A DNA stretch of 64,000 bases from Bacillus sp. 123MFChir2 (GTDB lineage: Bacteria > Bacillota > Bacilli > Bacillales > Bacillaceae_G): the NCBI RefSeq assembly GCF_000383235.1, contig NZ_KB910931.1, forward strand, positions 41,995 through 105,994, written 5' to 3'. Position numbers and translations under genes: made by a program. The notes below the pieces were generated by a model that saw only the letters and a list, made by a program, of their open reading frames with translations, had not been told where the DNA came from and searched no databases. How positions within the stretch are numbered: position 1 is the stretch's first letter; the number at the start of each line of letters is the position of its first letter. Of the stretch, positions 39,769-64,000 are shown piece after piece.

Positions 39769-39966
39769 AATACTTTCTAGCCCCTTTTATCATTTTTCTA
39801 TTTTGCTTTTATACTAACTTATAACCATCCTCTTTATATAATTGCATCCAATTATATAAGAATTATATCAACTATTTGCATGTAACTGCACTACCAAAAT
39901 AAAATTGGATCTATCTGTAACTTTCCTGAATACGGTAAAATACATATTAAAAAAGATAAGGGTGTC

Positions 39967-46156: not shown

Positions 46157-46178
46157 CCTTCTCCCTCCTAATCATTAC

Positions 46179-48122: not shown

Positions 48123-50044
48123 TGGGATTCCTCCTCTCCCAGTAATACTCCAAATAGTCCCGCCAGTTCCTCCTTCCAAACTTCTTCTAGGGATATTTCA
48201 AATACGTAGGGCCGCATTCCATTTTGTTTTAATGTCTGTTCAGCAGATTGTAATATTTCTTCTTGTGTTATGTTTTCACAAGAAGAAATAGAAAAATGTA
48301 ATGGCAGTTTATCTTGTAATAAAACTGATGAAGTCTCTAGTACTTGTGATGCGTGGCAATCATCACAATTTTGCGCTTCTGTAAGTGCCTGTTGTAATGC
48401 TTTGCGTAACGCTATTGTTTTATTTAACCCTACACTTCCATACCAGCGATTATTCGTATGAATCCAAATCACAGGGAAGTTAAAAATATCCTCTCCTAAA
48501 GCGATTGTAGGTGTTCCTTGCAATGTAGTAAGTGCTTGCAAATAAAAGCTGCAGCGTTCATCCTCTACTACATCTAATTTTAGCGTGAAAACAGAAATTT
48601 TTTGTTTTATTTGTCTCTTACGAAATTCTTCATCCAAACATTTTTGTAATCCCCTAGACACACATTCTGCGATCGTATCCCCAGCTCCAAATCCTATAAA
48701 TTGCTCATGTTCAGAAAGCATTGCACTCGCAATTCGCGATATATAGGCCTCAACTCCGGTTAATCCAGCTTCATACCTTGCTTCCATATGGGTCAAACCT
48801 GTACAAATCATATCTGGCAATAATTCAGCAGGGCCTTCTGACAGCGGATCAACTGTTTGAATGCGACATTGAGCCAATGGCAGTTGTTTTAAGTCATCTG
48901 CTTCCCAAATATGAAAAATCCCTGCTTCTTTTGATACAAGGGAATTCAAATTCAGAGTAGCTTCATTCCTTTCATTTTCACTTGATCTCTGTTTGTCTCT
49001 CGTATTGAAATCTTGAATCCATCTGATTTCCATCTTCTCAGTTACTAAAGGATGAGGTAAAAAGGAATGCCAGTTTCCTTCTAACGTTTCGGAATCCAAC
49101 AGAAAAAATTGATTTGTTTGCGTATGTTTCGTTATATCTGTAACCTTTTTGAACAGTTCAAATACAATTACATTTGCTAACATTGCTTCCGTTGTAGAAG
49201 AAAAAGTGTGTTCCCCTGAAGTTTTAGAAAATACAGACTTGTGTAAACGTCGCCAAGCTGATTCCCAGCAAGCATCATTTTCTGGGTGTACGAGTGGCCC
49301 AGCTAATCCGACCCCTTGCTTAGATATAGCAGGGATGAAAATCTTTTTTTCTTCTTTACAAATAGCATGAAGAGTTTTTAATTCCTCTATGTCTTCTCCT
49401 TGTGATATATACAAAATCGCCTGAAATGGCTGCACCGCATCTTTCAAACCATGTCTTTTTTCTTTTTGCAAAAAAATTTCTTCAATCGCCACTTCAGGAT
49501 CTGTTTTTTGTGCATGTGCTATTAATTCTTTTAATCTTCTTTTATTCGTTCGAACGGAATCAGTAATTAGCATCTGAAATTGTGGTAATCCCGATTCAAG
49601 TAACGCAGAAACTAGGGAAACAAAAAAAGAACCAGAACCAACAACTAATACTTTCGTTTGGCGATAAGATTGAAAACGATATGCACCTGAAACGCCGAGG
49701 TTATCTAAAAATTCAATTTGAGATGCGTATTTTTTTAGAATATGTTCTGATAATTGGTGTGGATGATCTTGACTTATGTCTGTTGCAAATTCATTTTGGT
49801 ACAGTATTTCTGCTATTTCAAATACTCGCTTTCGATATAACTCAGGTAAGCCATCTGTCAAATTCTCTAATGTATTTTCCCCATTAAACATCGGCACCAG
49901 TTTTTCAATCCATTGATTGATTGATTTTCCTTCCATACGGAATGAACTGGCATTATTTCTAAAATACACTTCTCCTTTTGGATTAGAAAGAAAAAAAGTA
50001 TCTCGTTTCATTTTCAAACGCGTAGAAGAGTTTAATTTTGTCAT
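48119..50044 (-). CDS. TOMM E1/ThiF-like maturation protein with leader-binding domain
   Basis: 641 residues. The N-terminus (about 1-90) resembles a PqqD-like RiPP recognition element (MEGKSINQWIEKLVPMFNG), which binds the precursor leader. A Rossmann-like E1 region follows (TKVLVVGSGSFFVSLVSAL near residue 130). The C-terminal part has a YcaO-like partial fold (GFGAGDTIAECVSRGLQK) but lacks a clear ATP site. This is the cluster-specific thiazole-containing bacteriocin maturation protein that presents the precursor to the YcaO enzyme. GGAGGAG precedes ATG 50044. First gene of the modification operon. Confidence 0.85.
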   Translation of the reverse strand: MTKLNSSTRLKMKRDTFFLSNPKGEVYFRNNASSFRMEGKSINQWIEKLVPMFNGENTLENLTDGLPELYRKRVFEIAEILYQNEFATDISQDHPHQLSEHILKKYASQIEFLDNLGVSGAYRFQSYRQTKVLVVGSGSFFVSLVSALLESGLPQFQMLITDSVRTNKRRLKELIAHAQKTDPEVAIEEIFLQKEKRHGLKDAVQPFQAILYISQGEDIEELKTLHAICKEEKKIFIPAISKQGVGLAGPLVHPENDACWESAWRRLHKSVFSKTSGEHTFSSTTEAMLANVIVFELFKKVTDITKHTQTNQFFLLDSETLEGNWHSFLPHPLVTEKMEIRWIQDFNTRDKQRSSENERNEATLNLNSLVSKEAGIFHIWEADDLKQLPLAQCRIQTVDPLSEGPAELLPDMICTGLTHMEARYEAGLTGVEAYISRIASAMLSEHEQFIGFGAGDTIAECVSRGLQKCLDEEFRKRQIKQKISVFTLKLDVVEDERCSFYLQALTTLQGTPTIALGEDIFNFPVIWIHTNNRWYGSVGLNKTIALRKALQQALTEAQNCDDCHASQVLETSSVLLQDKLPLHFSISSCENITQEEILQSAEQTLKQNGMRPYVFEISLEEVWKEELAGLFGVLLGEEESQ

Positions 50045-51252: not shown

Positions 51253-52476
51253 TTATTCTATATTTCGATTTATTTTATGGTGCGCAGTAACACCCACCTC
51301 AACTTTTTTTATTGGCAGAAACGTTCCAATACATGCAATACATGCACAAACTGCAAATACAAATGGTAATGACTTAACGGCTACGAATGATAGTGTTCCG
51401 AAAATAATAAGGTCTAATATCGAATCTAAAACAGACAATAACGAAATCGTTGTTGCACGCACATGAGACGGAATTATGTCATTACTAAGCTGCGAGTATA
51501 TCGGATAACGAATTGCACGTACGAAGCGTAAAATAAAGAACGCTCCTAATACAACCCACAATGTATCTCCAAAAAATGTTGATAATAGTAAACCACTAAC
51601 AGCTAACCCTCCTGTTACATTCATTAACATTGTACGTGAGAATCTACTAGTAAGCCATCCAATTGATATCGAAGAAAAGTATCCAAGGATAGCAGCTAAA
51701 GCATACATAATGCCAATCGCAAATACAGGAAGGCCTGCGTTCGTAAACAATGGTTGGTTAAAAGCGTCATATACTGCACTTGCTGGAATAAAAACAAGCG
51801 AGACGTTTAGAAACATAATAAGTAATTGTGGTGCTTTACGAATAACCCGTATTCCTTCAATTATTTGTGAAAAAGATTCTTCTCGGTAAGATGGTCGATT
51901 CTTTGGACTTTTGATGAAAAATAGCAAAACAAGTTCTACCAAATGAAATACAATTCCAAGAACAATTAAAAGTGTAAACTGTTCTTCTCGTAAATCTTTT
52001 GCAAAATACGAACCGAAAATGACAGCGATTAACATGGAAATAAAGCCTGCTGATTGGATTTTCCCCATTGCTTGATCCATTAAATGTTGCTCATTGTTTT
52101 CTTTTAATGATTCATAAATTAGCGCTTCATCTGCACCGGAGAAAAATGTAACTGACAAACCGTTCAATAAACTATAGACACAAAATAACCATAGATTATC
52201 TGCAAATAATAAGATAGAAATACTGACAGTTTTTATGATCGATCCTGTCAAAAATGATAACTTTGCACCGAATCGATCCGCATAAACACCTGCTGGGATT
52301 TCCCCAATAAGTACTGCCACACTCCAACACATCATAACAATAAAGATATTTGCTGCCGTTAAGCCTTTTTCCATATAAAAAAGAGTCATTACGGGCTGTA
52401 AAAAACTAATCGTCCCAAAAAATTGTACCCAAAATAAAATTGAAATATTATGCGTTGCGATTGTTTGTTTCTTCAA
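51253..52476 (-). CDS. MFS transporter with upstream leader peptide
   Basis: 407 residues from TTG 52476 with AGGAG upstream. Twelve hydrophobic helices; motif A AGVYADRFGAKLS near residue 62. The sequence resembles drug-efflux MFS proteins of Bacillus. A strongly translated 18-codon leader gene (52543-52599) and complementary segments that can pair with the MFS Shine-Dalgarno lie in the ~120-bp 5' region, a layout typical of antibiotic-inducible attenuation. Substrate unknown; a macrolide-like or translation-targeting drug would fit the regulation. Confidence 0.82.
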   Translation of the reverse strand: MKKQTIATHNISILFWVQFFGTISFLQPVMTLFYMEKGLTAANIFIVMMCWSVAVLIGEIPAGVYADRFGAKLSFLTGSIIKTVSISILLFADNLWLFCVYSLLNGLSVTFFSGADEALIYESLKENNEQHLMDQAMGKIQSAGFISMLIAVIFGSYFAKDLREEQFTLLIVLGIVFHLVELVLLFFIKSPKNRPSYREESFSQIIEGIRVIRKAPQLLIMFLNVSLVFIPASAVYDAFNQPLFTNAGLPVFAIGIMYALAAILGYFSSISIGWLTSRFSRTMLMNVTGGLAVSGLLLSTFFGDTLWVVLGAFFILRFVRAIRYPIYSQLSNDIIPSHVRATTISLLSVLDSILDLIIFGTLSFVAVKSLPFVFAVCACIACIGTFLPIKKVEVGVTAHHKINRNIE

Positions 52477-52481
52477 TTGTT

Positions 52482-52566
52482 CTCCTACTTTCCGTTATTC
52501 ATTTTTCATAATGGATTTAGGAAGCAGGAGTGTTATATTACGTTAGTTGATATTCACTCCTCTTCC
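52482..52566 (-). promoter_or_regulatory. Attenuator-like alternative stems before MFS gene
   Basis: In the minus-strand RNA the segment from 52532 to 52520 (cactcctgcttcc) can pair with ggaagaggagtg inside the leader gene (52566-52555). It can also pair with ggaaagtaggag (52493-52482), which holds the MFS Shine-Dalgarno. The two pairings are mutually exclusive. A promoter with -10 TATAAT at 52635-52630 lies just upstream of the leader gene. Confidence 0.6.
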
Positions 52567-52599
52567 TACGCTTGAAAATGTTTGTAGTGTTTTTTGCAT
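52543..52599 (-). CDS. 18-residue leader peptide of MFS exporter
   Basis: ATG 52599 is preceded by GGAGGAAATAAC, one of the strongest ribosome sites in the window. The peptide is MQKTLQTFSSVGRGVNIN. Its length, position 67 bases before the MFS start and the overlap of its last codons with an attenuator stem point to a regulatory uORF in which ribosome stalling changes RNA folding. There is no sign that the peptide itself has another function. Confidence 0.65.
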   Translation of the reverse strand: MQKTLQTFSSVGRGVNIN

Positions 52600-52764
52600 G
52601 TTATTTCCTCCTTCAATGTAGATAGATTTATTATAACAATTTTCTTAATATTAAAGAAACGTTTTTTAAAAAAATGATAAGATTGTAGGAACGTGTAAAG
52701 TAGTATATAATAAAATACAATAAATGATTATTTTAGGTATTCCTAAAATAAAGGAGCGATACAT

Positions 52765-52869
52765 ATGAACATTACTATTTATTTTGGAAGCCATGAAGAT
52801 CAAGAAGTACGTACAATGGATTGCCATTTAGATGTCGAAGATGCTGAAGAAATTGCATCTATTTCTTAA
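52765..52869 (+). CDS. Small acidic protein (34 residues)
   Basis: ATG 52765 with AAGGAGCG upstream. Acidic sequence (GSHEDQEVRTMDCHLDVEDA) with one cysteine. No family recognised. It is followed by a strong terminator (52919-52941) that supports it as an expressed gene. Confidence 0.6.
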   Translation: MNITIYFGSHEDQEVRTMDCHLDVEDAEEIASIS

Positions 52870-52918
52870 TATAAATATACATAATATTATGGGGAAGTTC
52901 TCTTCCCTATTCTTTATT

Positions 52919-52941
52919 AAGATGCCTTTTTAAGGCATCTT
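52919..52941 (+). terminator. Terminator of the 34-residue gene
   Basis: 10-bp perfect stem 52919-52928 / 52932-52941 followed by a T-run. Confidence 0.85.
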
Positions 52942-52967
52942 TTTTGTTTATTTTTGAGGAGAAAACA

Positions 52968-53019
52968 TTTACTTTTTAACGAATAAATAGTACAATATAA
53001 ATATAAGAACAAATGTTCG
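52968..53019 (+). promoter_or_regulatory. SigA promoter with LexA (SOS) operator
   Basis: -35 TTTACT (52968-52973), 17-bp spacer, -10 TACAAT (52991-52996). Ten bases downstream lies AGAACAAATGTTCG (53006-53019), matching 13 of 14 positions of the Bacillus LexA/DinR box CGAACRNRYGTTYG. The operator would sit over the transcription start. Confidence 0.7.
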
Positions 53020-53069
53020 TTTTGTATCTCATTCTCCTTTGGGATAGATACTAGGAAGGATGGATTTCA

Positions 53070-53774
53070 TTGGCTCTAAATAAACGCAGAGGAAGAAAAA
53101 AGCATACTCCGACTATATCAAATACAGGCTTTATTGGCTCTGTGTTTATCGATACATTAGAACTACAAAAAAAATCGTATTACTTTTCTCGCAAACGACT
53201 GCACATTGCGCATCATGTATTAGATGGTCTTGCACAAGCAACAAGTTCTCTTTTCGCTGAACATCATGTTTCTGCTTACTTATCGTGTGTGTATCTACAT
53301 AAACAAAAGAAAATTGGATTTGTTCTTTCGACGAAACCTTTTAAAGAAGCTGAAGGTGTTGCATATTTTAAAAATTATTTAATTGAAAAGAACTTTTATA
53401 ACGGAAAGATTGAAGAAGAAAATTATCAAGAAATTTTTAACACTGGTTTTATTGGTGTTGTTTTTGCAGATTTATCAAGCATTGATCGTTTTAATTTTGA
53501 TTTTGAAATGACTCTTTTATCGAAGTTAATGAAAGACATGATTATTCCAGTTAAAGAGTTATTTTTACGTAATAAAATTCCAGCATACATTTCTACTGTC
53601 AATTTGGAAGATCAACAAAAATTAGGATTTGTTTTATCTGTAAAGCCATACGATGAACGTGCTGAAGCTAATTTGTATTTTGAAATGTATTTGAGAGAAC
53701 GTGGTTTATATATTGGTGATGAAGAAGATGATATTGATAAGATTGTCATTCGAAAAAAAGTTGAGATATTATAG
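53070..53774 (+). CDS. Internally duplicated protein of unknown function, probable SOS gene
   Basis: 234 residues from TTG 53070, after AGGAAGGATGG. The protein is two copies of one ~105-residue unit: NTGFIGSVFIDTLE ... FVLSTKPF ... YLIEKNFYNG and NTGFIGVVFADLSS ... FVLSVKPY ... YLRERGLYIG. It is mixed alpha/beta and soluble, with a basic N-terminal tail (NKRRGRKKH). No known family recognised. A LexA box overlaps its promoter, suggesting induction by DNA damage. A bidirectional terminator follows (stem 53773-53790 / 53798-53815). Confidence 0.75.
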   Translation: MALNKRRGRKKHTPTISNTGFIGSVFIDTLELQKKSYYFSRKRLHIAHHVLDGLAQATSSLFAEHHVSAYLSCVYLHKQKKIGFVLSTKPFKEAEGVAYFKNYLIEKNFYNGKIEEENYQEIFNTGFIGVVFADLSSIDRFNFDFEMTLLSKLMKDMIIPVKELFLRNKIPAYISTVNLEDQQKLGFVLSVKPYDERAEANLYFEMYLRERGLYIGDEEDDIDKIVIRKKVEIL

Positions 53775-53815
53775 CAAAAAGGATGGTTAATATATAATTA
53801 GCCATCCTTTTTGCT
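53773..53815. terminator. Bidirectional terminator
   Basis: 18-bp arms 53773-53790 / 53798-53815 with one G-T pair and A/T runs, between convergent genes. Confidence 0.85.
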
Positions 53816-53819
53816 TAAA

Positions 53820-54326
53820 CTATTTAAAGTTTTCATTTTCTAATACTACAACATCTTCATTTGTTAATCTTCCAGCTTGTTTTGTATATTCTACAAGCCG
53901 GATAATATTATCACAGGCTTGCTTTGCACCGAAAACTAATAATGGCACACCAATAAAATCAATTTTTAATCTTCTCGAAAATAAACCACCGATCGTCATC
54001 GCAAATGGTACAGTTGGTGATGTATTAGAAAACACAATTTTTTCGTGGTTTTGATACTTATCTTGTAATAATATACTCAAATTTTTTAAAGCTGGAACCA
54101 CAACTTTAGATGCACCATGACCGACTGTATAAACAGGATCTCCGTTTTCATCTCGTCCGTGAAAAATAATTTTCCCCATATCGGAAGTTTTTAGTTTATT
54201 AAAATAATCAACGTTTAATATTTCGTCTTTTGTAAGTTTCCGATCCGTTGGTAGTTTTTTTAAATGATATGCTGCCGCTAATGAAGTTGTATGTGTCCCG
54301 CCATAATCAGTATAAATATAAATCAT
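53820..54326 (-). CDS. DUF3189 family protein
   Basis: 168 residues from ATG 54326 (AAAGGA upstream; adjacent ATG 54329 is equally possible). N-terminus MIYIYTDYGGTHTTSLAAAYHL and later IIFHGRDENGDPVYTVGHG are typical of DUF3189, a sporulation-associated family of unknown biochemistry in Firmicutes. It is soluble. Monocistronic. Confidence 0.8.
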   Translation of the reverse strand: MIYIYTDYGGTHTTSLAAAYHLKKLPTDRKLTKDEILNVDYFNKLKTSDMGKIIFHGRDENGDPVYTVGHGASKVVVPALKNLSILLQDKYQNHEKIVFSNTSPTVPFAMTIGGLFSRRLKIDFIGVPLLVFGAKQACDNIIRLVEYTKQAGRLTNEDVVVLENENFK

Positions 54327-54547
54327 CATATCATCCTTTAAATTAAAGTACATGATTACTAGTATGACCATTTATTCACGTTCTAATCTAAAAGGAAGGT
54401 ATATCGGATTTATAAGCGGTGAACAATTTAAGCTGTGTGAGTTTCAACTATGTAAAAGTAACCGGCACTCATTTTTTTCTCTATTTTTTACCGTTACATG
54501 AAGTAGGGATATGCTCTGTATGCCTCTAATACATGTCTGTTTTTCCA

Positions 54548-56275
54548 TTAAGAAGTTTGAGTAATTGGTATGTAGATTTTCACTGAAGTTCCTACTCCAA
54601 CCTTACTCTTTATATGGATTTTTCCTTGATGACGTTCAATAATTTTATAGCTAATCATTAAACCAATACCTGTTCCTTTTTCTTTCGTGCTATAAAAAGG
54701 TTCTCCAAGTTTTATAATTCTTTCTTCTGGAATACCAATTCCCTCATCTGAAACACAAATCATGACCTCATTGTCGCTTGTTTTCTTAGCAGTAATTATG
54801 ATGTCTCCTCCATTTGGCATTGCTTCAATTGAATTTTGTAAAACGTTTATAAATACTTGCTTTAACTGTTTTTCGCAACAATCAATATATAAACAGTTAG
54901 GGTCTGATTGGAATGTGATATGAATATTTGTCATAATTGCTTTTGTGTTAATTAACGACACAACATTTTCTAATATAAAAGAAAGATTTTTGTTTTCAAA
55001 AGAGGGAATTTCAGGTTTTGCAATTGATAAAAACTCATGAATAATAGATTCAATTCGCTCAATTTCAGAAAGCATCAGTGGGAAGTATTCTGTATCACTT
55101 TTCATTTGTAATAATTGTATAAATCCTTTAATAACAGTTAAAGGATTGCGTACTTCATGTGCAACGCCGGCAGCAAGTTGACTGACTGCAGCTAATGTGT
55201 CTGATTTATTTAATAGTTCGGCTGTCTTCTTTTGTTCTGTAATATCACGAACAATAACCATAATTTTATCTGTTAAAAGCGGTAAACATCGAGCTTCAAA
55301 ATAATATTTACTATCGTGCATTGCTAAGGAGTAGTCTACAATTTCTATGGAACTATTTTGTTGTACTTTAACAATTGCGTTGTGTAACTGATCGGCAACA
55401 TCTGAAGGTAAAACATCTTGAAACTTTTTGCCCATAAATTCTTCAATTGGGACATAAAACTTTGAGGAAGAACCAGCTTTATAATCAACAATTGTTCCAT
55501 CAAAATTAGTTAAAAAACATAAATCTGGTAGCGCTTTAAAAATCAATTCTAATTCTGACGATTTTTGTGTGAGTTCTTCTTCAATCTTCTTTCGATGCGT
55601 AATGTCGATACCAATTGCCCAGTGGCTATATCCAGGGATGGGGAATTCATCTGATAAGTTTGACCATATTATTGTTTTTTGATCCCCGTTTTTACAAGTA
55701 AGTGTCATTTCCCAGTCTCGAAAGTTTTTACCACGTGCCGAGAACTCATTTAGCAGTTGAATACGATATTTATCATCAGGATAAAGGTGTTCTAATGCGC
55801 GAGGATTGTTTACAATTTCAGCTGTGCTGTAACCTGTTACTAGTTCGCACTCCCGGTTCCATATAACAATATTTCCTTCTTCATCACATGCATCAACCAT
55901 GGCAGGCATGTTTTGTAAAATGGTATATAATTTTTTAGCAGGTATCGATTGAATCTCCTGAATTTGTTGCAATTTATTCGTTCCGATATTGATCATAAGT
56001 GTTGCAAGAGATTGAAAATATATTCTGCAGGAATCAATACGGTTTTGAGGAGAACAAATGATGAAATTTCCAATCGTATGTTCATTAATGATAATTGGAA
56101 CACGGATTTTTGTATGTAAATGTATATCATTGGATTCTGTGCCGTAATGGAATAATATCTCTTGATTGGAATCAAGAAGCTGATGTGAAATATTTGTTAA
56201 AGAATAAAATTGTTCTGCTATTTTTTTTATTTCTTCAATATCAATAAGTTCTGTAAGCCGATACATATCCGCCAA
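54548..56275 (-). CDS. Orphan sensor histidine kinase with PAS domains
   Basis: 575 residues. Residues ~1-100 resemble a PocR-type sensory domain (uncertain). Two PAS domains follow (VDACDEEGNIVIWN and PDLCFLTNFDGTIVDY). The kinase core has the H-box AAGVAHEVRNPLTVIKGF near residue 370, N-box NVLQNSIEAMPNGG, G1 DEGIGIP and G2 GTGIGLMIS. No transmembrane segments, so it is cytosolic. No response regulator gene adjoins it; such orphan PAS kinases in this group often feed the Spo0F phosphorelay. GGAG-like purines precede ATG 56275. Confidence 0.88.
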   Translation of the reverse strand: MADMYRLTELIDIEEIKKIAEQFYSLTNISHQLLDSNQEILFHYGTESNDIHLHTKIRVPIIINEHTIGNFIICSPQNRIDSCRIYFQSLATLMINIGTNKLQQIQEIQSIPAKKLYTILQNMPAMVDACDEEGNIVIWNRECELVTGYSTAEIVNNPRALEHLYPDDKYRIQLLNEFSARGKNFRDWEMTLTCKNGDQKTIIWSNLSDEFPIPGYSHWAIGIDITHRKKIEEELTQKSSELELIFKALPDLCFLTNFDGTIVDYKAGSSSKFYVPIEEFMGKKFQDVLPSDVADQLHNAIVKVQQNSSIEIVDYSLAMHDSKYYFEARCLPLLTDKIMVIVRDITEQKKTAELLNKSDTLAAVSQLAAGVAHEVRNPLTVIKGFIQLLQMKSDTEYFPLMLSEIERIESIIHEFLSIAKPEIPSFENKNLSFILENVVSLINTKAIMTNIHITFQSDPNCLYIDCCEKQLKQVFINVLQNSIEAMPNGGDIIITAKKTSDNEVMICVSDEGIGIPEERIIKLGEPFYSTKEKGTGIGLMISYKIIERHQGKIHIKSKVGVGTSVKIYIPITQTS

Positions 56276-56540
56276 CTCCTATATTAATAATTCAAATGTA
56301 TATATTGTTTTTTAAATTGTGTGTAATTTTTAAATTTACCCAACTTTTCTATTATACGAATTAAAATTATTAAGGTACATAGAAAAATAGAGTTATTCAT
56401 GAATTTTTTTATTTTTCAACACGGAATCTAGAAAAAAAGGATAAAAACACGCGAAAAAGAACAAATTTTGTCGAAATTCGTTCTTTTTCGCGTGTTTAAT
56501 CAGTAATAAATTTAAGAGATTGAAGTTGCAAGTACAATTT
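56276..56540. other. Intergenic stretch with a strong inverted repeat, flank of the cassette
   Basis: No gene. An 18-bp perfect inverted repeat (56445-56462 / 56480-56497) containing acgcgaaaaagaac lies here. The last five bases (56536-56540, aattt) are one copy of the target-site duplication of the Tn3-type cassette. Confidence 0.6.
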
Positions 56541-56578
56541 GGGGTATCGCCATCATTTCAGAAAAACCTAACACTAAG
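56541..56578 (+). repeat. Left terminal inverted repeat of Tn3-type cassette
   Basis: 38 bp, starts GGGGTATCGCCATC and ends ACTAAG, inner end to the right. Matches the Tn3-family terminal repeat pattern. Confidence 0.85.
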
Positions 56579-56659
56579 CAAATTGGAATAAGAAAAGAGC
56601 CGATTTTGGGTTAATAGACACACGTGATTTAAATTGTCCTTTTTCTTGACATAGACCAG

Positions 56660-57940
56660 TCACGTGCCACATTCCTTTTTAAATATTTTTTTAAAAGAAG
56701 GTTTCCATTCTGACAAATCCTGATAAACAAACGTTATATTGTCACATATTTTATCTGCAACTTCATACATATGTTCTATATCATTAGCCGTAAATAATAT
56801 ATTTCCTTTGCGCCCAGTACTGTCTACAATAGTTGGTATGGTGTCGCCCTCTTTTACTAATAGATCAATTAATACGACCTCGGATATGTTAGCTAATCCT
56901 TTATACTTGATTTCTTTTAAGTAACCTGGTTTTGGAATCAAGCTTAAAGACATAGCTTGACATTTGGAAGGTACACATCTAAATTCATCTATAGTCTCAG
57001 TAGCTAACGCATCATAATAGTATCCAAATTGAGATATGCCGGTCGTTAGTTCCACCATTTTCCATACGTTACCACCACCTATTCTAACTTGAGACTCTAT
57101 GATTATTGGCTTATTTTGTTTGTCTATCTTTATTTCTGTATGAGTAATGCCGTTTTCCATTTGTATGTCGTCCAAAAATAGCATGACTTTCTCAATAATT
57201 AATTTTTTTTGAGATTCATCTATAGGTGCCGGCATAATAGTATAGTTTATTATAAACGTATCTTCTTTACATATTTCAGCTGATATAGCTAGTATAGAAT
57301 GTTTTTTGTTATAAGAAATGGTTTCGACTGTATAAACTACGTCACCTTCAATGTACTCTTCCACCAAAACAGGTAGTTGAATCCCACTATCTTTAATAAA
57401 TACCTCTACGTCATCTCCCGTGTCTAGCTTAGATACTCCTTTACCACCTGCGCCAATCGGGGGCTTTATTATTATACTATCTTTTTTGTTTAAAAATTCA
57501 TCAATGTCTTTTATGTTATTGCAAACTGTCGAATCTATCGAAAAGTCTTTGCCTGCTAGAATTTCGCGCATCATATCTTTATTGCGGGTTATCATATTAG
57601 CATTGTAAGAAGGTCCTTTAACATTAAAAATCTTTGCAATTATGCAAGCCGTATCTAAGGCTATTTCGTTGAAAGATACAACCACATCAAATGGTTTCTC
57701 TTTGTATAATTCTTCAGCATAGTATACAGACAAGGGTATGTTTGTTGTGTCTATTTCCTTTTTGTAGTAACACTTTTCTAAGATAGTTCCATCAAAATAT
57801 ATGTGTTTAGCGTAAGACCCTATATATGAGACAGTATACCCACTGTCTAAAGCATCTTGTATAGGCTTTGTCCATCCCCCTATAAATAAAATGTGCGGTG
57901 CATATTCATTGTCAGTTTCTTTTGATACCTTATACATCAT
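56660..57940 (-). CDS. ATP-grasp ligase, BacD / L-amino-acid-ligase type
   Basis: 426 residues from ATG 57940, 6 bases after GGAG; an ATG at 57946 abuts that site. ATP-grasp features: P-loop-like SIIIKPPIGAGGKGVSKLD near residue 155, VLVEEYIEGDVVYTVETIS and the Mg ligands in THTEIKIDKQNKPIIIESQ followed by VRIGGGNVWKMVE. The N-terminal pre-ATP-grasp region and overall length fit L-amino-acid ligases of the BacD type, which join two amino acids into a dipeptide, or related carboxylate-amine ligases. Last gene of the cassette operon, 11 bp after the MFS stop. Not a CPSase, since only one grasp domain is present. Confidence 0.82.
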   Translation of the reverse strand: MMYKVSKETDNEYAPHILFIGGWTKPIQDALDSGYTVSYIGSYAKHIYFDGTILEKCYYKKEIDTTNIPLSVYYAEELYKEKPFDVVVSFNEIALDTACIIAKIFNVKGPSYNANMITRNKDMMREILAGKDFSIDSTVCNNIKDIDEFLNKKDSIIIKPPIGAGGKGVSKLDTGDDVEVFIKDSGIQLPVLVEEYIEGDVVYTVETISYNKKHSILAISAEICKEDTFIINYTIMPAPIDESQKKLIIEKVMLFLDDIQMENGITHTEIKIDKQNKPIIIESQVRIGGGNVWKMVELTTGISQFGYYYDALATETIDEFRCVPSKCQAMSLSLIPKPGYLKEIKYKGLANISEVVLIDLLVKEGDTIPTIVDSTGRKGNILFTANDIEHMYEVADKICDNITFVYQDLSEWKPSFKKIFKKECGT

Positions 57941-57951
57941 AATCATCTCCT

Positions 57952-59196
57952 CTAAAATGAACTCGTATATTCAATGTCGGTCCCTTTTGATACGCCTCGC
58001 CTTAACAACGCTATTAAACATAATGTTGTTCCGAAGCCCCCTATAAATAACGTAGTTTGAAGCCCAAATATAGAAACTAAAAATGCACTAGCAAAACTTC
58101 CCAATGCCCAGGCTCCCCAATTAAGCGTACGCTGCATGGCATTTACTCTGCCTAGCATGTGATTTGGTGAGACAAGTTGTCGTATCGTTGCAGCGTAAGG
58201 GCCAAATACACCTTCTCCCATACCATGTATGATACTTGCAACTACTATACCGTAAACGGTTCCCATATATCCCATTATCGGTATAAAAGCCAGACCGGTA
58301 ACTGATACAGTAGCGCTATAAATAAGCATTTTTGTATTATTAATTTGGTGACTTTTTTTCATGAGTATCGTATTGCCTATTAAAAATCCCACCGCTGCTG
58401 AACCTACAACAAAACCAATTTCAAGTTCAGATAGACCCATTACCTTATAAAGGAATATTACTAAAATGCTATTTAGTATGTATTTAAAAAAACCGTAAAC
58501 AGCACCGCAAGTTACAATTGGTTCTAATACTGGGTGTTTTTTAAAATATATCAAGCCCTCATATATGTTTTGGTATATGGATTTTATATTTACGTCTTTT
58601 AAGGAGCCCGCTGTATGCGGTTTAAACTTTGAAATAAATAATACAAACACAAAACAAACAAAATATGTTACTGCGTCAACGGTGAAAGAGCCTGTTAATC
58701 CAACTAGAGTAATAACGATTCCTGCTAGCATAGGACCAATTACTATAGAAAGAGACTCCGAAAGTGCCAGCCCCGCATTTCCTTTTTTAAAGTTGTCTCT
58801 ATCTGTTAATATTTCCGGTAAGAAAGAAGGAATTGCAATGTTGTAAAACGTGGTAAATATTCCATTTAAAAACATAAGAAACACCAATAAAGGGAACGTT
58901 ATTATATTTGTTACAGTCAGTATGAATACTGATAAAAATAAAACACCTTGACATATACTACAAATTAACAAAACATTTTTTCTATGAAGGATATCTATTA
59001 AAGCACCGGCTACTAATCCGAAAATTAGGTAGGGTATAAATATAATCCCACGAAGCATGGCAGCATTTGCCTCACTTGTTTGTAGCACCTCTAATGCAAA
59101 AAGAGGCAAAGCTACTATTGTAAACTGAGTACCTAACAAACTTATAGACTGTCCTAACCAAAGCTTGTGAAAATTAAAATGTTTGCTATTTTTCAT
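57952..59196 (-). CDS. MFS exporter, BacE-like
   Basis: 414 residues, about 12 helices; N-terminus KLWLGQSISLLGTQFTIVAL and motif A AGALIDILHRKN are typical of the MFS_3 exporter group that includes BacE, the bacilysin exporter/self-protection protein. GGGGGGG precedes ATG 59196. It stands between the 26-codon gene and the ATP-grasp gene in one operon with gaps of 16 and 11 bp. Export of the ligase product is the natural inference. Confidence 0.85.
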   Translation of the reverse strand: MKNSKHFNFHKLWLGQSISLLGTQFTIVALPLFALEVLQTSEANAAMLRGIIFIPYLIFGLVAGALIDILHRKNVLLICSICQGVLFLSVFILTVTNIITFPLLVFLMFLNGIFTTFYNIAIPSFLPEILTDRDNFKKGNAGLALSESLSIVIGPMLAGIVITLVGLTGSFTVDAVTYFVCFVFVLFISKFKPHTAGSLKDVNIKSIYQNIYEGLIYFKKHPVLEPIVTCGAVYGFFKYILNSILVIFLYKVMGLSELEIGFVVGSAAVGFLIGNTILMKKSHQINNTKMLIYSATVSVTGLAFIPIMGYMGTVYGIVVASIIHGMGEGVFGPYAATIRQLVSPNHMLGRVNAMQRTLNWGAWALGSFASAFLVSIFGLQTTLFIGGFGTTLCLIALLRRGVSKGTDIEYTSSF

Positions 59197-59212
59197 AATA
59201 CCCCCCCACTGA

Positions 59213-59293
59213 TTAAAGTTTCACTTTATCAAGAATTTGATGTAGCTCGGCGCAGTTGAGTTCGGCTAAAGATGCTATATGCTGATCAGACAT
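59213..59293 (-). CDS. 26-residue peptide gene inside the cassette operon
   Basis: ATG 59293 overlaps the last codons of ogt and has AAGGAG 7 bases upstream, a strong ribosome site; the gene ends TAA at 59213, 16 bp before the MFS start. The peptide begins MSDQHIASLAELNCAELHQI and ends LDKVKL: acidic/amphipathic, one Cys. It may be a RiPP-like substrate, a regulatory peptide, or the leftover N-terminus of a deleted gene. Nothing in the sequence decides. Confidence 0.5.
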   Translation of the reverse strand: MSDQHIASLAELNCAELHQILDKVKL

Positions 59294-59834
59294 GTTGTAA
59301 CTCCTTCCCATTGTTTGTAAAGCCACGTTCAAGTTCCAGCAGTTGCGTTTTCATTTCCATTCCGCCGCGATAGCCCGTCAGCGATCCATTTTTGCCGATA
59401 ACACGATGGCATGGAACAGTAATGAGGATCGGATTCGTTCCAATGGCCCTCCCAATTGCCCGAACCGCAGTCGGTTTTTGAATTTGTTGGGCAATATCTG
59501 AGTAGGATCGAGTTTGACCGTACGGAATATCACATAGTGCCTTCCATACGGATTCCTGAAAAGGTGTGCCGTGATAAAAGATTGGAATGGTGAACCGATT
59601 GAGCTTGCCTTGAAAATAACGAACAAGTTCATCTGCAAAAGGTTGCAATTTTTCGTCATCTCGAATCATGTCGTTTCCAGGCAAGTAATGATTTGCCCAT
59701 TTCACCAATTCTTCGAATGGTTGATTTTGCGATCCGACAAAACATAAGCCCTTTTTTGTTGCGGCAATGTACATCTTCCAATTTTCATAAGACAACAAGG
59801 ACCAATAAAGAGAACTGCTCTTTTTAGGTGTCAT
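59286..59834 (-). CDS. ogt: Methylated-DNA-protein cysteine methyltransferase
   Basis: 182 residues. Active-site PCHRVIG near residue 146 and helix-turn-helix recognition segment AVRAIGRAIGTNPI. The protein takes the methyl or alkyl group from O6-alkylguanine onto its Cys and is consumed. AGGAGG precedes ATG 59834. It overlaps adaA by 11 bp. GC content of adaA and ogt is visibly higher than that of the MFS and ATP-grasp genes next to them. Confidence 0.92.
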   Translation of the reverse strand: MTPKKSSSLYWSLLSYENWKMYIAATKKGLCFVGSQNQPFEELVKWANHYLPGNDMIRDDEKLQPFADELVRYFQGKLNRFTIPIFYHGTPFQESVWKALCDIPYGQTRSYSDIAQQIQKPTAVRAIGRAIGTNPILITVPCHRVIGKNGSLTGYRGGMEMKTQLLELERGFTNNGKELQHV

Positions 59835-60474
59835 TTGAAAACGCCTCCTTCAAGTGTTGTTTTTGCTGTCTACGGTAAGCTTCCGGTGTTTGTCCGGTTT
59901 TCCTCTTAAACAGCGTGATAAAATATGGCGTATTGGAAAGTCCGACAGACTCACCAACTTCAGAAACTGTGTCATCAAAAGTAGTCAATAATTTTTTCGC
60001 CTTTTCTATTCGAACATGCTGGATGTAGTCCACCGGGGTTATGCCTTTGATTTTTTTAAAGGTTCTATGCAAGTGATAAGGGGTTCCGTGACTTAGAAGC
60101 GCAAGGACTTTAAGCGTCAACTTTTCATCGCAGTGGCTATCCACATATTCAGTTATAAAAGCAATCCACTCCTCATCGGGAAGTCTTTGCCTGGTTGGCT
60201 TACACCGTTTGCAGGGACGAAAGTGTGCAGCTAGCGCTTGATCAGCATTTTCAAAAAAGCCAATGTTTTCTCTTTTGGGTACTCTTGATTTGCAAGAAGG
60301 GCGACAAAAAATTCCTGTTGTTTTCACTGCATAAAAAAATTGTCCGTCATAAGAAGCATTATTATTGACAACAGCCTGCCATTGTTCATCAGAAACAGGG
60401 ACGGATAGAATTGGCTTGCCAGAGTCTGGTTGTGGATTAGTTCGGTTCGAATTCGTTTTCCAATCGTATGTCAT
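59824..60474 (-). CDS. adaA: Ada-type transcriptional activator (methylphosphotriester sensor)
   Basis: 216 residues. The N-terminal zinc domain has the four cysteines FCRPSCKSR and FRPCKRCKP; methylation of the first Cys by DNA methylphosphotriesters turns the protein into an activator. The AraC-type double HTH follows (LTLKVLALLSHGTPYHLHRT and VGESVGLSNTPYFITLFKRK). First gene of the cassette operon, with GAGGTGATT upstream of ATG 60474. If it activates its own promoter, all five genes of the operon would be induced by alkylating agents. Confidence 0.9.
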   Translation of the reverse strand: MTYDWKTNSNRTNPQPDSGKPILSVPVSDEQWQAVVNNNASYDGQFFYAVKTTGIFCRPSCKSRVPKRENIGFFENADQALAAHFRPCKRCKPTRQRLPDEEWIAFITEYVDSHCDEKLTLKVLALLSHGTPYHLHRTFKKIKGITPVDYIQHVRIEKAKKLLTTFDDTVSEVGESVGLSNTPYFITLFKRKTGQTPEAYRRQQKQHLKEAFSNDT

Positions 60475-60675
60475 TTTGAATCACCTCTAGCTTCAGTATA
60501 AACCTGGAAACCCTGAAAACAAGTTATTGTAAGCATTTTGAAATGTAACAGCAAGATAACGAAATTACAATGACGAGTTGTTATGTAATCATACGTAGTC
60601 TGATTCATATGATTGGAGAAAATGAAAAGTTGGCTTATTTTGTTTTCTCATGTAATCACCTCCACAGAAAACTAG

Positions 60676-60855
60676 TATAAACCCAAAATTCATCATTTGT
60701 ACGGATTTGGGAATATAAGAGCAAGATTACAAAATCAAATAAAAGAAATTATTTGGAATCCTATGCAACGTTTTATTTATGGAGAACCCTATATTGATGT
60801 ATCGTTTTCTACCATAGTTAAATACCAGGAGGATACGGATGAAAAATACAATTAG
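60676..60855 (+). pseudogene. Coding-like fragment of unknown family within the cassette
   Basis: A + frame from 60676 to TAG 60855 reads GFGNIRARLQNQIKEIIWN then PMQRFIYGEPYIDV, with no start and no recognised family. It may be a remnant of a former passenger or of a resolvase-like gene. The rest of 60475-60973 contains the operon promoter region and a perfect 16-bp terminator-like stem (60914-60929 / 60947-60962). Confidence 0.35.
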
Positions 60856-60913
60856 GACATAAATGTTTGAAGGATTGCATTCAACAAGTTTACATTCCTT
60901 ACGCCTTTTAAAT

Positions 60914-60962
60914 AATAAAGAGCCAAATTACTCTTAACAGAGAAAAAATTTGGCTCTTTATT
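60914..60962. terminator. Perfect 16-bp stem near right end of cassette
   Basis: Arms 60914-60929 / 60947-60962 with a 17-nt loop, 11 bp inside the right terminal repeat; likely insulates the cassette. Confidence 0.7.
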
Positions 60963-60973
60963 ATTCCAATTTG

Positions 60974-61011
60974 CTTAGCGTGAGGTTTTTCCGAAATACT
61001 GGCGGTGTCCC
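60974..61011 (-). repeat. Right terminal inverted repeat of Tn3-type cassette
   Basis: 38 bp; on the minus strand it reads GGGACACCGCCAGT ... CGCTAAG. Eight mismatches against the left repeat; closer than the left one to the Tn4430 end as I remember it. Confidence 0.88.
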
Positions 61012-61068
61012 AATTTTTGTTCATGCCTTCTTTACCTTTTTATTTGTAGTCTAAATAGTAAAATTAGT

Positions 61069-61923
61069 TCATCCAATAACATAGCGGCGAAGAGCATGAG
61101 CCACACCATGATCATCATTTGACAGTGTTTTGTAGCGACAAATTGTTTGAATCTCTTCCACAGCATTTCCCATTGCAATTGATATATTTGCCTTTTCCAT
61201 CATAGACATATCATTTAAACCATCACCAATTGCGACGGTATGTTCTTTTAATATCCCTAACTGATTTGCTAGTGTATATAACCCATTCCCTTTTTGAGCA
61301 TGAATATGATTTATTTCAAGATTGTGCCAGTAAGATGCTGTGATCGATAGCTCTTCGTTATTTATAAATTGCGTTTTTAATAACTTTAATTTTTCCTTTT
61401 GATACGAGAATGGGAGAATTTTATGAATGTGAATTGGTGCTGAAAATAGCGATTTACAGCTTTCAATTGGTTTCGTTTCAGTATGCTGTAAATATAATGC
61501 TGCTATTTGTTTCAGTTCTTCTTCATCAGCGTGTAGATCCGAGTTTATAATAAAATTCATCTCAAGTTCAATTGTTTTTTCTCCGTATTCTGGGATATAT
61601 ACCCCTTGATCTGTATACAATTGATAAAATATATTTTTTTCCTCTAAATAATTAACAATCTCTTCTGCATGTTTATTTGCAATTGGATATCGCTGTAACA
61701 TTACATCATCTAAATACAAAATTGCACCGTTTTCTGCAATGATTGGACATTTTAAATTTGTTTCATGAAGAAGTTTTTTAACATCTGTCATAGAGCGTCC
61801 AGTACAAATCGCAACGACATGTCCTTTTTCCTGACACTCCTTAATAGCTGCCGCATTTTCCTCACTAATTACCTTCTTTGATGTAAGAAGAGTGCCGTCT
61901 AAATCAATTGCAATAAGTTTCAT
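61069..61923 (-). CDS. HAD-IIB (Cof-type) phosphatase
   Basis: 284 residues. Motif I IAIDLDGTLLTSKK at the N-terminus, motif II VAICTGRSM, motif III/IV IGDGLNDMSMME near residue 230. Cof-type HAD enzymes dephosphorylate sugar phosphates, FMN or similar small molecules. The gene lies just outside the right end of the Tn3 cassette and predates it. Monocistronic. Confidence 0.9.
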   Translation of the reverse strand: MKLIAIDLDGTLLTSKKVISEENAAAIKECQEKGHVVAICTGRSMTDVKKLLHETNLKCPIIAENGAILYLDDVMLQRYPIANKHAEEIVNYLEEKNIFYQLYTDQGVYIPEYGEKTIELEMNFIINSDLHADEEELKQIAALYLQHTETKPIESCKSLFSAPIHIHKILPFSYQKEKLKLLKTQFINNEELSITASYWHNLEINHIHAQKGNGLYTLANQLGILKEHTVAIGDGLNDMSMMEKANISIAMGNAVEEIQTICRYKTLSNDDHGVAHALRRYVIG

Positions 61924-62106
61924 TACTATTCCCTACTTTCGTTTCTATATATGTGATAAATGATATCGTTCTCGTACGCAACACCATAGTTATAATGTAT
62001 GAAACGCATTTCAGGTCAAGAGAAAACATTTAGTATGCAAAATTTTTATATTCTTTACATATAAAAGGTATGAAAATGATTGTTATTATCAATAATATAC
62101 ATAAGA

Positions 62107-62136
62107 AAAGGGTAACCTAGATTGCGGTTACCCTTT
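62107..62136 (-). terminator. Terminator of DUF1540 gene
   Basis: 11-bp perfect stem 62107-62117 / 62126-62136 with A-rich left flank. Confidence 0.8.
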
Positions 62137-62141
62137 GAGAC

Positions 62142-62297
62142 TTAAACTTCTGGTATAAATGTTTTGCAATCTGTTTCTTTACTGTCATTTGCTTGTTTCC
62201 CTGTATGACTAACTACATAAATAGATTCAGCATTGCACTTATTTCCATTTCTCCAATATTGGCAATTATTCACTTCACAAAGAACATCTTGAGCCAT
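62142..62297 (-). CDS. DUF1540 protein
   Basis: 51 residues from ATG 62297, with AGGAGGTG 9 bases upstream. Cysteines in LCEVNNCQYW, NKCNAES and ETDCKTF give the four-Cys pattern of DUF1540, a small probable metal-binding domain found in Firmicutes. Its ribosome site is buried in a 15-bp stem (62296-62353). It follows the P450 gene by 71 bp on the same strand. Confidence 0.85.
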   Translation of the reverse strand: MAQDVLCEVNNCQYWRNGNKCNAESIYVVSHTGKQANDSKETDCKTFIPEV

Positions 62298-62353
62298 AGT
62301 ATGACACCTCCTTTTTTGTTTAGTATGAACAGTATTGAGAGGTGTCATACTAT
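62296..62353 (-). promoter_or_regulatory. Stem covering Shine-Dalgarno and start of DUF1540 gene
   Basis: Perfect 15-bp inverted repeat 62296-62310 / 62339-62353. In the minus-strand RNA the 3' arm contains GAGGTG and the bases up to the start codon, so the stem would hide the ribosome site. It could act as a thermosensor, protein-binding stem or partial terminator of P450 transcripts. Confidence 0.6.
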
Positions 62354-62368
62354 TTCGGATCCATTCGC

Positions 62369-63592
62369 CTAGAAAGATAATGGTAATTCTTCTAATGATC
62401 TCGTCAAATAATTACCACTCCATTTTATGTCTTCTCTTCTTCCGTTTATTTTAAGATTAGGCATACGATGTAATAAAGTAGGAATTGCAATTTTTGCTTC
62501 TAAACGAGCAAGAGATGCACCAAGGCAGAAATGAATGCCATGACCAAAGGCGATATGACAGTTATTTTTTCTTGTAATATCAAAAGTATGAGCGTTTGGA
62601 AATATTTTTTCATCGCGGTTAGCAGAGGCTAAGGAAATAATCACCTCATTTTTCGGCTCTATCTTTTGACCATGCAATGTAAATGATTCCGATGCCCAGC
62701 GCATAGTCGTTATTTCAACTGGACTGTAAAATCGTAATGACTCCTCAATTGCCGAGTCAATCAAATCTGGATTTTGATGTAGAAGTAGCAATTGATCAGG
62801 ATGTTCAAGCAATGCTAGAGTCATATTGGTGATTAAATTGACAGTTGTTTCGTGTCCAGCGACGATAAGCAGCATAATCATTGAATTTAATTCCTGAACA
62901 CTTAATTTTGTTCCTTCACTTTCTGCTTGTATTAATGCACTGACTAAATCGTCTGAAGGATTTTCTCGTTTTTTATCTACTAAATCTCGTAAATAATCAA
63001 TGAATTCACCTAACTTTTTATCAGTTTCTCGAATAGCTTCTAGTGTATCTGGAGAATCAATAACCGTATGTGACCAAACTCTAAATTTATCTCGATCTTC
63101 TTGAGGGATACCAAGCATCTCGCTAATCACAATAATTGGAAGTGGAAAAGCATAATCATTTACGAGGTTTATAGTGTGCTGATGTTCTATTTTGTCTAAT
63201 AAAGTATCAGCAATGGATTGAATGTTATCTTTCAGCTGTAAAATCATCTGCGGGGTAAACGCTTTTTGAACAAGGGATCGTAGGCGACTATGGTCAGGTG
63301 GATCAGATCTCAACATATGTTTTCTCAAATACTCTCCATTTTCTAGTGTAAAATAGGCCTCAAATTCTTCTTTACTAAATACATTTTTAGCATCCTTCAG
63401 TAAACGTGTATCTTTTAATAAACTTACTGCATCTTCATATCTTGTAATAAGCCAGGCGTTAGGATATACCTGATAAACAGGATGAGATGCACGTAACTCT
63501 TTGTAAATGTCATATGCTTCATGTTTAAACGCAGCCGAAGTTAATTGGATCTCAGGTAATGTGTTACGATTCATTTCATTATTAGAAGACAT
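62369..63592 (-). CDS. Cytochrome P450 (CypA-like)
   Basis: 407 residues. I-helix LIVAGHETTVNLITN near residue 245, ExxR ESLRFYSP, and heme-binding FGHGIHFCLGASLAR with the Cys ligand near residue 357. Soluble bacterial P450 of the CYP107 sort; it needs a ferredoxin partner, which is not adjacent. GGAGG precedes ATG 63592. Substrate unknown. Confidence 0.92.
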   Translation of the reverse strand: MSSNNEMNRNTLPEIQLTSAAFKHEAYDIYKELRASHPVYQVYPNAWLITRYEDAVSLLKDTRLLKDAKNVFSKEEFEAYFTLENGEYLRKHMLRSDPPDHSRLRSLVQKAFTPQMILQLKDNIQSIADTLLDKIEHQHTINLVNDYAFPLPIIVISEMLGIPQEDRDKFRVWSHTVIDSPDTLEAIRETDKKLGEFIDYLRDLVDKKRENPSDDLVSALIQAESEGTKLSVQELNSMIMLLIVAGHETTVNLITNMTLALLEHPDQLLLLHQNPDLIDSAIEESLRFYSPVEITTMRWASESFTLHGQKIEPKNEVIISLASANRDEKIFPNAHTFDITRKNNCHIAFGHGIHFCLGASLARLEAKIAIPTLLHRMPNLKINGRREDIKWSGNYLTRSLEELPLSF

Positions 63593-63739
63593 ACCGCTAA
63601 CCTCCGTCTTTAGAAATATTTGGTGACCACAAGCACCTAATGACCATTATAACGCGTTTAAATTTTAAGAAAGTTGAGAAAATTACAACTAAACAACTTA
63701 TTGTTATACCTTCAATCTAAAAAAGCCCGTTATACATGA

Positions 63740-64000
63740 GGCCACTGAAAAACTCACGTTTTTTCAGCTCAAAAACCGGATGTGAAATTAGAAAGGCGAC
63801 TTTTCGTTCAAAATGGAACGAAAAGTCGCCTTTCTTTCTATTCTTTTTTTACTTTTCTTCCTTTTTTTCCTTCATTAAGGTCATAATTCGTTTTAAATTG
63901 ACGGCAAATATAGCCATCGCACCTTGCATTCGCATACCAATGAGACCCGAGGAAGATGCTACATCATACCCGTGTCTGTGCTTCAGTTCACTATTTTTCG
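63740..64000 (-). mobile_element. IS element, one end with transposase C-terminus (partial)
   Basis: The last ~50 codons of a transposase lie on the minus strand (63849-64000, stop TAA at 63849): ELKHRHGYDVASSSGLIGM then RMQGAMAIFAVNLKRIMTLM, a C-terminus typical of IS1182-like DDE transposases. A perfect 20-bp terminator stem (63790-63809 / 63816-63835) follows. The likely terminal repeat begins around 63740 (ggccactgaaaaac). The other end is beyond the window. Confidence 0.7.
63849..64000 (-). CDS. IS1182-like transposase, C-terminal part (cut by window edge)
   Basis: Frame open to the window end with stop at 63849-63851. The last residues are KEKKEEK. The family call rests on the pattern ANLKR-like AVNLKRIM tail after a basic GYDVASSSGLIGMR segment, from memory of the family. 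Confidence 0.65.
   Translation of the reverse strand, partial: KNSELKHRHGYDVASSSGLIGMRMQGAMAIFAVNLKRIMTLMKEKKEEK

What the first reader, a model, noticed from the sequence alone, without database searches (positions are those of the whole stretch)
56536..61016. Transposase-less Tn3-type cassette with perfect 5-bp target duplication
Two 38-bp ends in inverted orientation (30/38 identical to each other) match the Tn3/Tn4430 repeat form. The five bases on each outer side are both aattt. That is direct evidence that this exact 4,471-bp segment transposed as a unit. It holds no transposase or resolvase, only passenger genes, so it is a mobile cassette that depends on a Tn3 TnpA in trans, comparable in logic to the MIC elements described for IS231.
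Basis: partly seen in the sequence, partly recalled or inferred. Interest (0 to 1): 0.88.

Follow-up and report, generated by a model that had tools for sequence, protein, structure and literature searches.

The report
Tn4430-type cassette carrying alkylation-response operon
A 4.5-kb piece of DNA with transposon ends but no working transposase carries genes that sense and repair alkylated DNA plus a pump and a peptide-bond-making enzyme; the cassette type is known, but its cargo, found beside broken Tn3 transposons in other genomes too, is unusual.

Summary
Inverted 38-bp ends (30/38 alike) bound exactly 4,471 bp, flanked by a perfect AATTT duplication. The ends are Tn4430-type: 30/38 and 32/38 to the end of an element whose TnpA aligns end to end with Tn4430 transposase. 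One correction: the right end keeps the tnpA terminator and last 23 tnpA codons, so this derives from an autonomous Tn4430-like transposon. The duplication does not show that the transposase-less form moved; in-place loss of tnpA fits equally. The right end is altered in box A, so present mobility is doubtful. The empty site was not testable: no close relative of the host turned up in what was searched.

The cargo is one operon, adaA-adaB-(alkB stub)-MFS exporter-ATP-grasp ligase, behind two Ada-type operators. The exporter-ligase pair lies downstream of such an operator in 8 of 8 loci, one beside a distant ada lineage. In two other genomes the only match to one TnpA query is a C-terminal relic beside part of this operon. 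Element: new member of a known kind (Tn3-family MIC). Cargo: an apparently mobile exporter-ligase module under Ada-type operators, not seen in the papers searched.

The parts
56536..56540 (.). left copy of the 5-bp target duplication AATTT
56541..56578 (+). IRL, 38-bp Tn4430-type end, box A GGGGT intact; 30/38 to the Tn4430-type end
56579..56599 (+). rest of transposon-derived left end; homology to the operon as found in L050, L051 and L052 starts at 56600
56660..57946 (-). ATP-grasp ligase, 428 aa, LAL_C2 domain; best PDB match L-amino acid ligase BL00235 (3vot), then BacD
57952..59196 (-). MFS exporter, 414 aa (MFS_1, MFS_3)
59216..59293 (-). 26-codon ORF overlapping the end of adaB: its first ~23 codons match the start of an alkB-like 2OG-Fe(II) oxygenase gene (Oxygenase-NA in relatives); relative to L051 about 1.97 kb (rest of this gene plus a radical-SAM gene) is absent between 59225 and 59214
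59286..59834 (-). adaB, O6-alkylguanine-DNA alkyltransferase, PCHRV motif present
59824..60474 (-). adaA, Ada metal-binding domain plus AraC-type HTH; CxxxC and CxxC cysteines present
60542..60565 (-). Ada-type operator P2, upstream of adaA
60592..60651 (-). 20-codon ORF: start of a second, truncated adaA, like the promoter-adaA' region of L065
60712..60735 (-). Ada-type operator P1; promoter region 60629-60752 is 96% identical to L065
60866..60937 (+). tnpA 3' relic: 23 codons plus stop
60911..60965 (+). tnpA terminator-type hairpin, 19-bp perfect stem, at the place of the hairpin in the L001 and L002 ends
60974..61011 (-). IRR, 38-bp Tn4430-type end; 32/38, but GGGAC in place of GGGGT at the tip
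61012..61016 (.). right copy of the 5-bp target duplication AATTT

Best explanation
This is a non-autonomous derivative of a Tn4430-like (Tn3-family) transposon. Shown: two Tn4430-type ends, a 5-bp duplication, a tnpA 3' relic with its terminator, and an open operon adaA-adaB-(alkB stub)-MFS-ATP-grasp behind two Ada-type operators. Inferred: a Tn4430-like element that had taken up the operon inserted here by replicative transposition; tnpA and any resolvase were lost before or after that insertion, leaving the ends, which a related TnpA could in principle still bind in trans. The operon should work as an inducible alkylation response: methylated DNA phosphates methylate AdaA, which then switches on P1/P2 (mechanism carried over from established knowledge of Ada proteins, not tested here); AdaB removes O6-alkylguanine lesions; the ATP-grasp enzyme probably joins an amino acid to a small molecule, and the MFS protein probably exports that product or the toxic agent.
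For: Ends, duplication and chance estimates. Window 60859-61012 is 82% identical to L001 8995-9148, which is end plus terminator plus tnpA 3' end; L001's TnpA aligns over 987 of 987 residues with Tn4430 transposase 7qd8/7qd4. The full operon adaA-adaB-oxygenase-radical SAM-MFS-ATP-grasp, with no TnpA match or Tn4430-type end seen beside it, exists in L050 and L051, and its homology covers window 56600-60604 apart from the missing segment, so the cargo is separable from the transposon ends. dN/dS is 0.18-0.26 in 11 of 11 comparisons over the four genes (window against L005, L039, L050 and L051 where the gene is uninterrupted; L052 and L065-L067 were not compared). An Ada-type operator lies upstream of MFS on the same strand in 8 of 8 exporter-ligase loci (5 of the 8 loci were in the alignment from which the motif was written, L065-L067 were not).
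Against: No second copy and no empty site were found, so transposition of the reduced form is not shown. The right end is changed at box A (positions 4 and 5) and at position 14, where Tn4430 TnpA makes contacts (PMC9579193 passages); the left end keeps box A but has 5 of its 8 differences in positions 21-36, the main recognition stretch. Whether the host has a matching TnpA is unknown (no genome held). Substrates of the ligase and the exporter are unknown, and Ada control was read from sequence only. Tn3 relics were found beside 3 of the 9 operon or part-operon loci compared (window, L005, L039; not L050, L051, L052, L065, L066, L067).
Confidence: 0.85

Rival explanations
1. A complete Tn4430-like transposon with the ada operon inserted here and then lost tnpA and resolvase in place; the reduced form never transposed.
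For: tnpA 3' relic at its place next to the end; the two ends differ from each other at 8 of 38 positions and the right-end box A is altered; eroded tnpA relics also sit beside parts of this operon in L005 and L039.
Against: All four cargo genes are open and constrained, and precedent shows that transposase-less Tn3 elements up to 3.9 kb do move (PMC4133298 passages). Nothing here tells the two apart.
Confidence: 0.45
2. One reading: the 4,471-bp cassette itself transposed as a unit on TnpA supplied in trans (MIC).
For: Both ends present and perfect duplication; another Tn4430-type end pair without a TnpA match between exists in L061, though without a duplication.
Against: Only one copy seen; tip of the right end is altered; empty site not testable here.
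Confidence: 0.45
3. The boundary repeats are chance or a non-transposon repeat, and the operon arrived by ordinary recombination.
For: None found.
Against: 30 and 32 of 38 against at most 24 in 100 shuffles, plus terminator and tnpA relic in register with one of the ends.
Confidence: 0.02

Closest known systems
Tn4430 (Tn3 family, Tn4430 subgroup)
   Same: 38-bp end type, tnpA C-terminus and terminator next to one end, 5-bp duplication.
   Different: No tnpA or tnpI and no identified resolution site; carries a 4-kb operon, whereas Tn4430 has no known passenger genes (PMC7157771 passage). Both ends share three changes at positions 27-29, so the parent was probably a relative of Tn4430 rather than Tn4430 itself.
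Tn3-family insertion cassettes (MICs) such as those with TALE genes on Xanthomonas pXAC64
   Same: Tn3-derived, carrying cargo, devoid of transposition genes (PMC7157771 passage).
   Different: Tn4430-type ends in a Bacillus-like host, stress-response operon as cargo, tnpA 3' relic kept.
TIMEs and other transposase-less Tn3-derived elements of Pseudomonas and Enterobacteriaceae
   Same: Transposase-less, 38-bp ends, 5-6-bp duplication in AT-rich DNA, mobility shown by trapping (PMC4133298 passages; PMC13367494 abstract).
   Different: Not a 262-bp miniature nor a composite of two of them; the window's ends flank one operon directly.
MIC231 (IS231, B. cereus)
   Same: Logic of a cassette without transposase (title in the reference list of PMC6542083; details recalled).
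   Different: IS231 is an IS4-family element (recalled); the ends here are Tn3-type.
Bacillus adaA-adaB adaptive response
   Same: AdaA and AdaB domain make-up and overlapping gene order, operator upstream (comparison with B. subtilis recalled).
   Different: Exporter and amino-acid ligase appended; oxygenase reduced to a stub.

Membership tests
Tn3-family element (Tn4430 subgroup) | ~38-bp inverted ends starting GGGG and related to Tn4430 | tested here: met
   30/38 and 32/38 to the L001 end; IRL begins GGGGT, but IRR begins GGGAC
Tn3-family element (Tn4430 subgroup) | 5-bp target duplication | tested here: met
   AATTT on both sides
Tn3-family element (Tn4430 subgroup) | functional TnpA | tested here: not met
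   only 23 C-terminal codons
Tn3-family element (Tn4430 subgroup) | resolvase (TnpR or TnpI) and resolution site | tested here: inconclusive
   no recombinase domain in the four cargo genes; small ORFs and resolution sites were not searched specifically
Tn3-family MIC (transposase-less cassette) | Tn3 ends around cargo, no transposition genes | tested here: met
   tnpA relic noted
Tn3-family MIC (transposase-less cassette) | moves when TnpA is supplied in trans | not testable with these tools
   no second copy or empty site available
TIME | miniature element of about 0.3 kb without cargo | tested here: not met
   4,471 bp with four genes
IS231 MIC | IS231 ends | not tested
   IS231 ends were not searched for; the ends present are Tn4430-type
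Ada adaptive-response operon | AdaA (Ada_Zn_binding plus AraC HTH) and AdaB (DNA_binding_1 with PCHRV) | tested here: met
Ada adaptive-response operon | induction by DNA methylation | not testable with these tools
   operator-like sequence only

The most novel reading that the evidence does not exclude
The exporter plus amino-acid-ligase pair is a mobile add-on to the Ada response: it repeatedly joins ada operons or bare Ada promoters of different lineages, is kept when the repair genes erode, and has been ferried by Tn3-family elements of at least three lineages. It would give bacteria a chemical arm of the alkylation response, pumping out or amino-acylating a natural alkylating agent, or making a dipeptide in reply.
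Probability: 0.3. Interest if true: 0.72.

Novelty: new member of a known kind. Interest (0 to 1): 0.5.

Why it matters
It shows a Tn4430-type cassette whose cargo is a regulated DNA-damage response, and it points to an exporter-ligase pair of unknown chemistry behind Ada-type operators that occurs, patchily and with 91-94% DNA identity, in distantly related Bacillus- and Paenibacillus-like genomes. The pair makes a clear question testable: is there a natural alkylating compound against which Bacillales carry an inducible, mobile detoxification unit?

Tried and rejected
Empty site: the HAD gene flanking the cassette gave no relative in genome contigs, 0 of 2 genomes in the family of G151 and 0 of 397 genomes drawn from the larger order of G022; nadE of the window is only 53-74% identical in the 5 genomes tested; the joined-flank pattern and the right-flank pattern gave 0 matches in viral contigs, and the right flank matched no plasmid except at an IS1182 stretch. 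With no close relative found, these blanks say nothing about the site. The cassette has no near match in the plasmid collection, its right end none in the phage collection, and the ATP-grasp protein and the flanking kinase none in viral contigs.

First idea that the cargo is a fusion of two unrelated modules (ada part near L005, MFS-ligase part near L039): replaced when L050 and L051 showed the whole operon in one piece. It is still partly true: MFS-ligase is 91% identical in L052 whereas adaAB there is only 62%, and P1 with the truncated adaA' matches the short form of L065. Whether the 1.97 kb missing relative to L051 was deleted here, or adaAB entered a short form like L065, is not settled.

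The 26-aa ORF after adaB was first taken for a stray fragment; L006, L008, L050 and L051 show it to be the start of the oxygenase gene.

Search for more Tn4430-type ends: 7 of 397 genomes had one matching end at up to 2 mismatches, and 3 viral contigs one each by the exact degenerate pattern. A looser scan found a second end in L061 (4247-4284 and 5260-5297, no duplication) and an out-of-register one in L053. Not followed further. Rfam: no match at gathering scores in 52000-64000. Structure prediction was not run. Stops that one search reports in the ATP-grasp matches of L062 and L063 are the natural ends of full-length frames (425 and 422 codons).
Full report
Observation. The ends, their inverted orientation, 30/38 identity, the 4,471-bp span and the AATTT duplication are as reported. 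Likeness between the ends continues to 42/50. Against the Tn4430-type end the two ends score 30 and 32 of 38; the next best site in the 64-kb window scores 22, and the best in 100 mononucleotide shuffles is 24. The 5-bp match alone has a chance probability of 0.0016, so most of the weight lies on the ends.

Which transposon. A blastn search of the right end against plasmids found CP079755 (L001) at 81% over 85 bases, under a gene annotated as Tn3 family transposase. Window 60859-61012 is 82% identical to L001 8995-9148. L001's transposase aligns over all 987 residues with the Tn4430 transposase of PDB entries 7qd8 and 7qd4. Tn4430's own DNA was not in hand; the end used for comparison is that of L001, which agrees with the Tn4430 end as I recall it. 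The shared stretch is the 38-bp end, the hairpin terminator and the last part of tnpA. The window keeps 23 codons and the stop, 78% identical in protein. The cassette is thus a derivative of an autonomous Tn4430-like element. Both window ends share three changes at positions 27-29, so the parent was probably a relative of Tn4430. The left transposon-derived part is short: homology to the operon in L050, L051 and L052 starts at 56600, 22 bases beyond the inner edge of the IRL.

Did the reduced form move? The duplication shows that an element with these ends inserted. It does not show whether tnpA was already gone. Passages of the Tn4430 structure paper (PMC9579193, 12 of 20 places shown) give box A as 5'GGGGT, named contacts at positions 4, 6, 14, 32 and 36, and a main recognition stretch at 21-36. 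The left end keeps box A and the named positions, though 5 of its 8 differences lie in 21-36. The right end has GGGAC at the tip and T instead of C at position 14 (which strand the paper numbers is my reading). I infer reduced or lost activity of the right end. In-place loss and movement as a cassette stay about equally likely. Precedent for movement of such elements is good: Tn3-derived non-autonomous elements of 262-3892 bp with 38-bp ends and 5-6-bp duplications were trapped in Pseudomonas (PMC4133298 passages), and cassettes devoid of transposition genes are described for Xanthomonas (PMC7157771 passages).

Cargo. All four cargo genes run leftwards: adaA 59824-60474, adaB 59286-59834 (overlapping), MFS 57952-59196 and ATP-grasp 56660-57946, 5 bases after MFS. 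From the end of adaB towards MFS runs the start of an alkB-like oxygenase gene, identified from Paenibacillus loci and from L050/L051 (PF09859 in the L050 and L052 proteins). In L050 and L051 the operon is adaA-adaB-oxygenase-radical SAM-MFS-ATP-grasp; relative to L051 the window lacks 1.97 kb between window 59225 and 59214. The ATP-grasp protein carries an LAL_C2 domain, and its best solved relatives are the L-amino acid ligase BL00235 and BacD. dN/dS against L005, L039, L050 and L051 is 0.18-0.26 in 11 of 11 comparisons (interrupted copies and L052, L065-L067 not included), so the genes have been under constraint.

Control. An 11-sequence alignment of promoter regions shows an invariant core ATCTTGCT within a 24-base operator-like block. 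The window has two, P2 before adaA and P1 170 bases further upstream, the latter followed by a 20-codon stub of a second adaA. The same operator lies upstream of MFS on the same strand in 8 of 8 loci that hold the exporter-ligase pair, at 161-3322 bases. Five of those 8 loci contributed to the alignment from which I wrote the motif; L065, L066 and L067 did not. The motif occurs 21 times in the 763 kb held, which is enriched for ada loci. Induction itself is inferred from what is known of Ada proteins.

Spread of the pair. Close relatives of the ATP-grasp protein were found in 1 of 80 genomes of the family of G001 (E up to 1e-35), 3 of 397 drawn from its order (E up to 1e-60), 3 of 296 drawn from the order of G003 and 2 of 299 drawn from the order of G002, both already counted: 7 distinct genomes. 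In two of the seven the ATP-grasp gene is interrupted (L039 frameshift; L052). Window MFS-ligase DNA is 91-94% identical to all seven, although nadE is only 53-74% identical in the four of these hosts tested plus G001; that points to horizontal transfer. In L052 the neighbouring adaAB is only 62% identical to the window's while MFS-ligase is 91%, so the pair has joined a different ada operon. In L065-L067 adaA is eroded to a fragment while MFS and ATP-grasp remain full length.

Link to Tn3 elements. In G001 the only match to the TnpA query in the whole genome (E up to 0.001) is a C-terminal relic about 50 bases after adaB; in G022 the only match is a relic 486 bases upstream of MFS. The relics differ from each other and from the window's (55-62% identical where they overlap), and in L005 the relic is followed by what by eye is an end of another Tn3 type (23 of 38 to the Tn4430-type end; I recall it as Tn1546-like). 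Three of 9 operon or part-operon loci have such relics: window, L005 and L039; L050, L051, L052, L065, L066 and L067 have none beyond chance-level matches (E 0.73 in L052, 0.028 in L067). Of the 30 adaA loci (L005) has a relic. A single TnpA query would miss distant relics, so genome-wide counts are lower bounds. G151 and G449 each have one TnpA match on another contig than the operon, G108 none. The window itself holds a second relic far from the cassette (39952-40077), so relics are not confined to this operon.

Not in print? Searches for adaA or adaB with ATP-grasp, MFS, alkylation, mobile elements or transposons listed no paper on such an operon; only listings were seen (15 of 200, 5 of 5 and 8 of 8 papers), and the library holds open-licence papers only. 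Searches for Tn4430 or mobile insertion cassettes in Bacillus (25 of 109, 12 of 22 and 10 of 25 listed) showed general works, none with a title on a Tn4430-type cassette with an ada operon; again listings, plus passages of PMC6542083.

Verdict. A real, well-bounded, Tn4430-derived non-autonomous element: new member of a known kind. Its cargo is the more interesting part.

Noticed in passing
window 39952-40077: A second TnpA C-terminal relic (60% identical to P0001 over 42 residues), with no Tn3 end seen by eye nearby.
   Followed up: partly
L005 5723-5781 and 8308-8366: A 59-nt direct repeat (97%) brackets adaAB, the tnpA relic and the Tn3-type end.
   Followed up: no
L001 (CP079755, Klebsiella grimontii plasmid pNY3A): The record carries a Tn4430-like transposase and a collagen-like protein gene and looks like a Bacillus plasmid, so the organism label may be wrong (inference).
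   Followed up: no
L061 4247-5297: A 1.05-kb segment between two Tn4430-type ends (33/38 and 37/38) with one ORF weakly like a methyltransferase (below Pfam cut-off), no tnpA match and no duplication.
   Followed up: partly
window 23135-24127: ORF that by eye resembles a LAGLIDADG homing endonuclease, free-standing (not tested with a profile).
   Followed up: no
window 44588-50044: Three large ORFs that by eye resemble a YcaO-type azole-peptide cluster (not tested with a profile).
   Followed up: no
window 63738-64000: 79.6% match to an IS1182 transposase region of a Priestia plasmid at the window's edge.
   Followed up: no
L001 8996-15355: The Tn4430-like element has two perfect 38-bp ends but no matching 5-bp flanks.
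   Followed up: no
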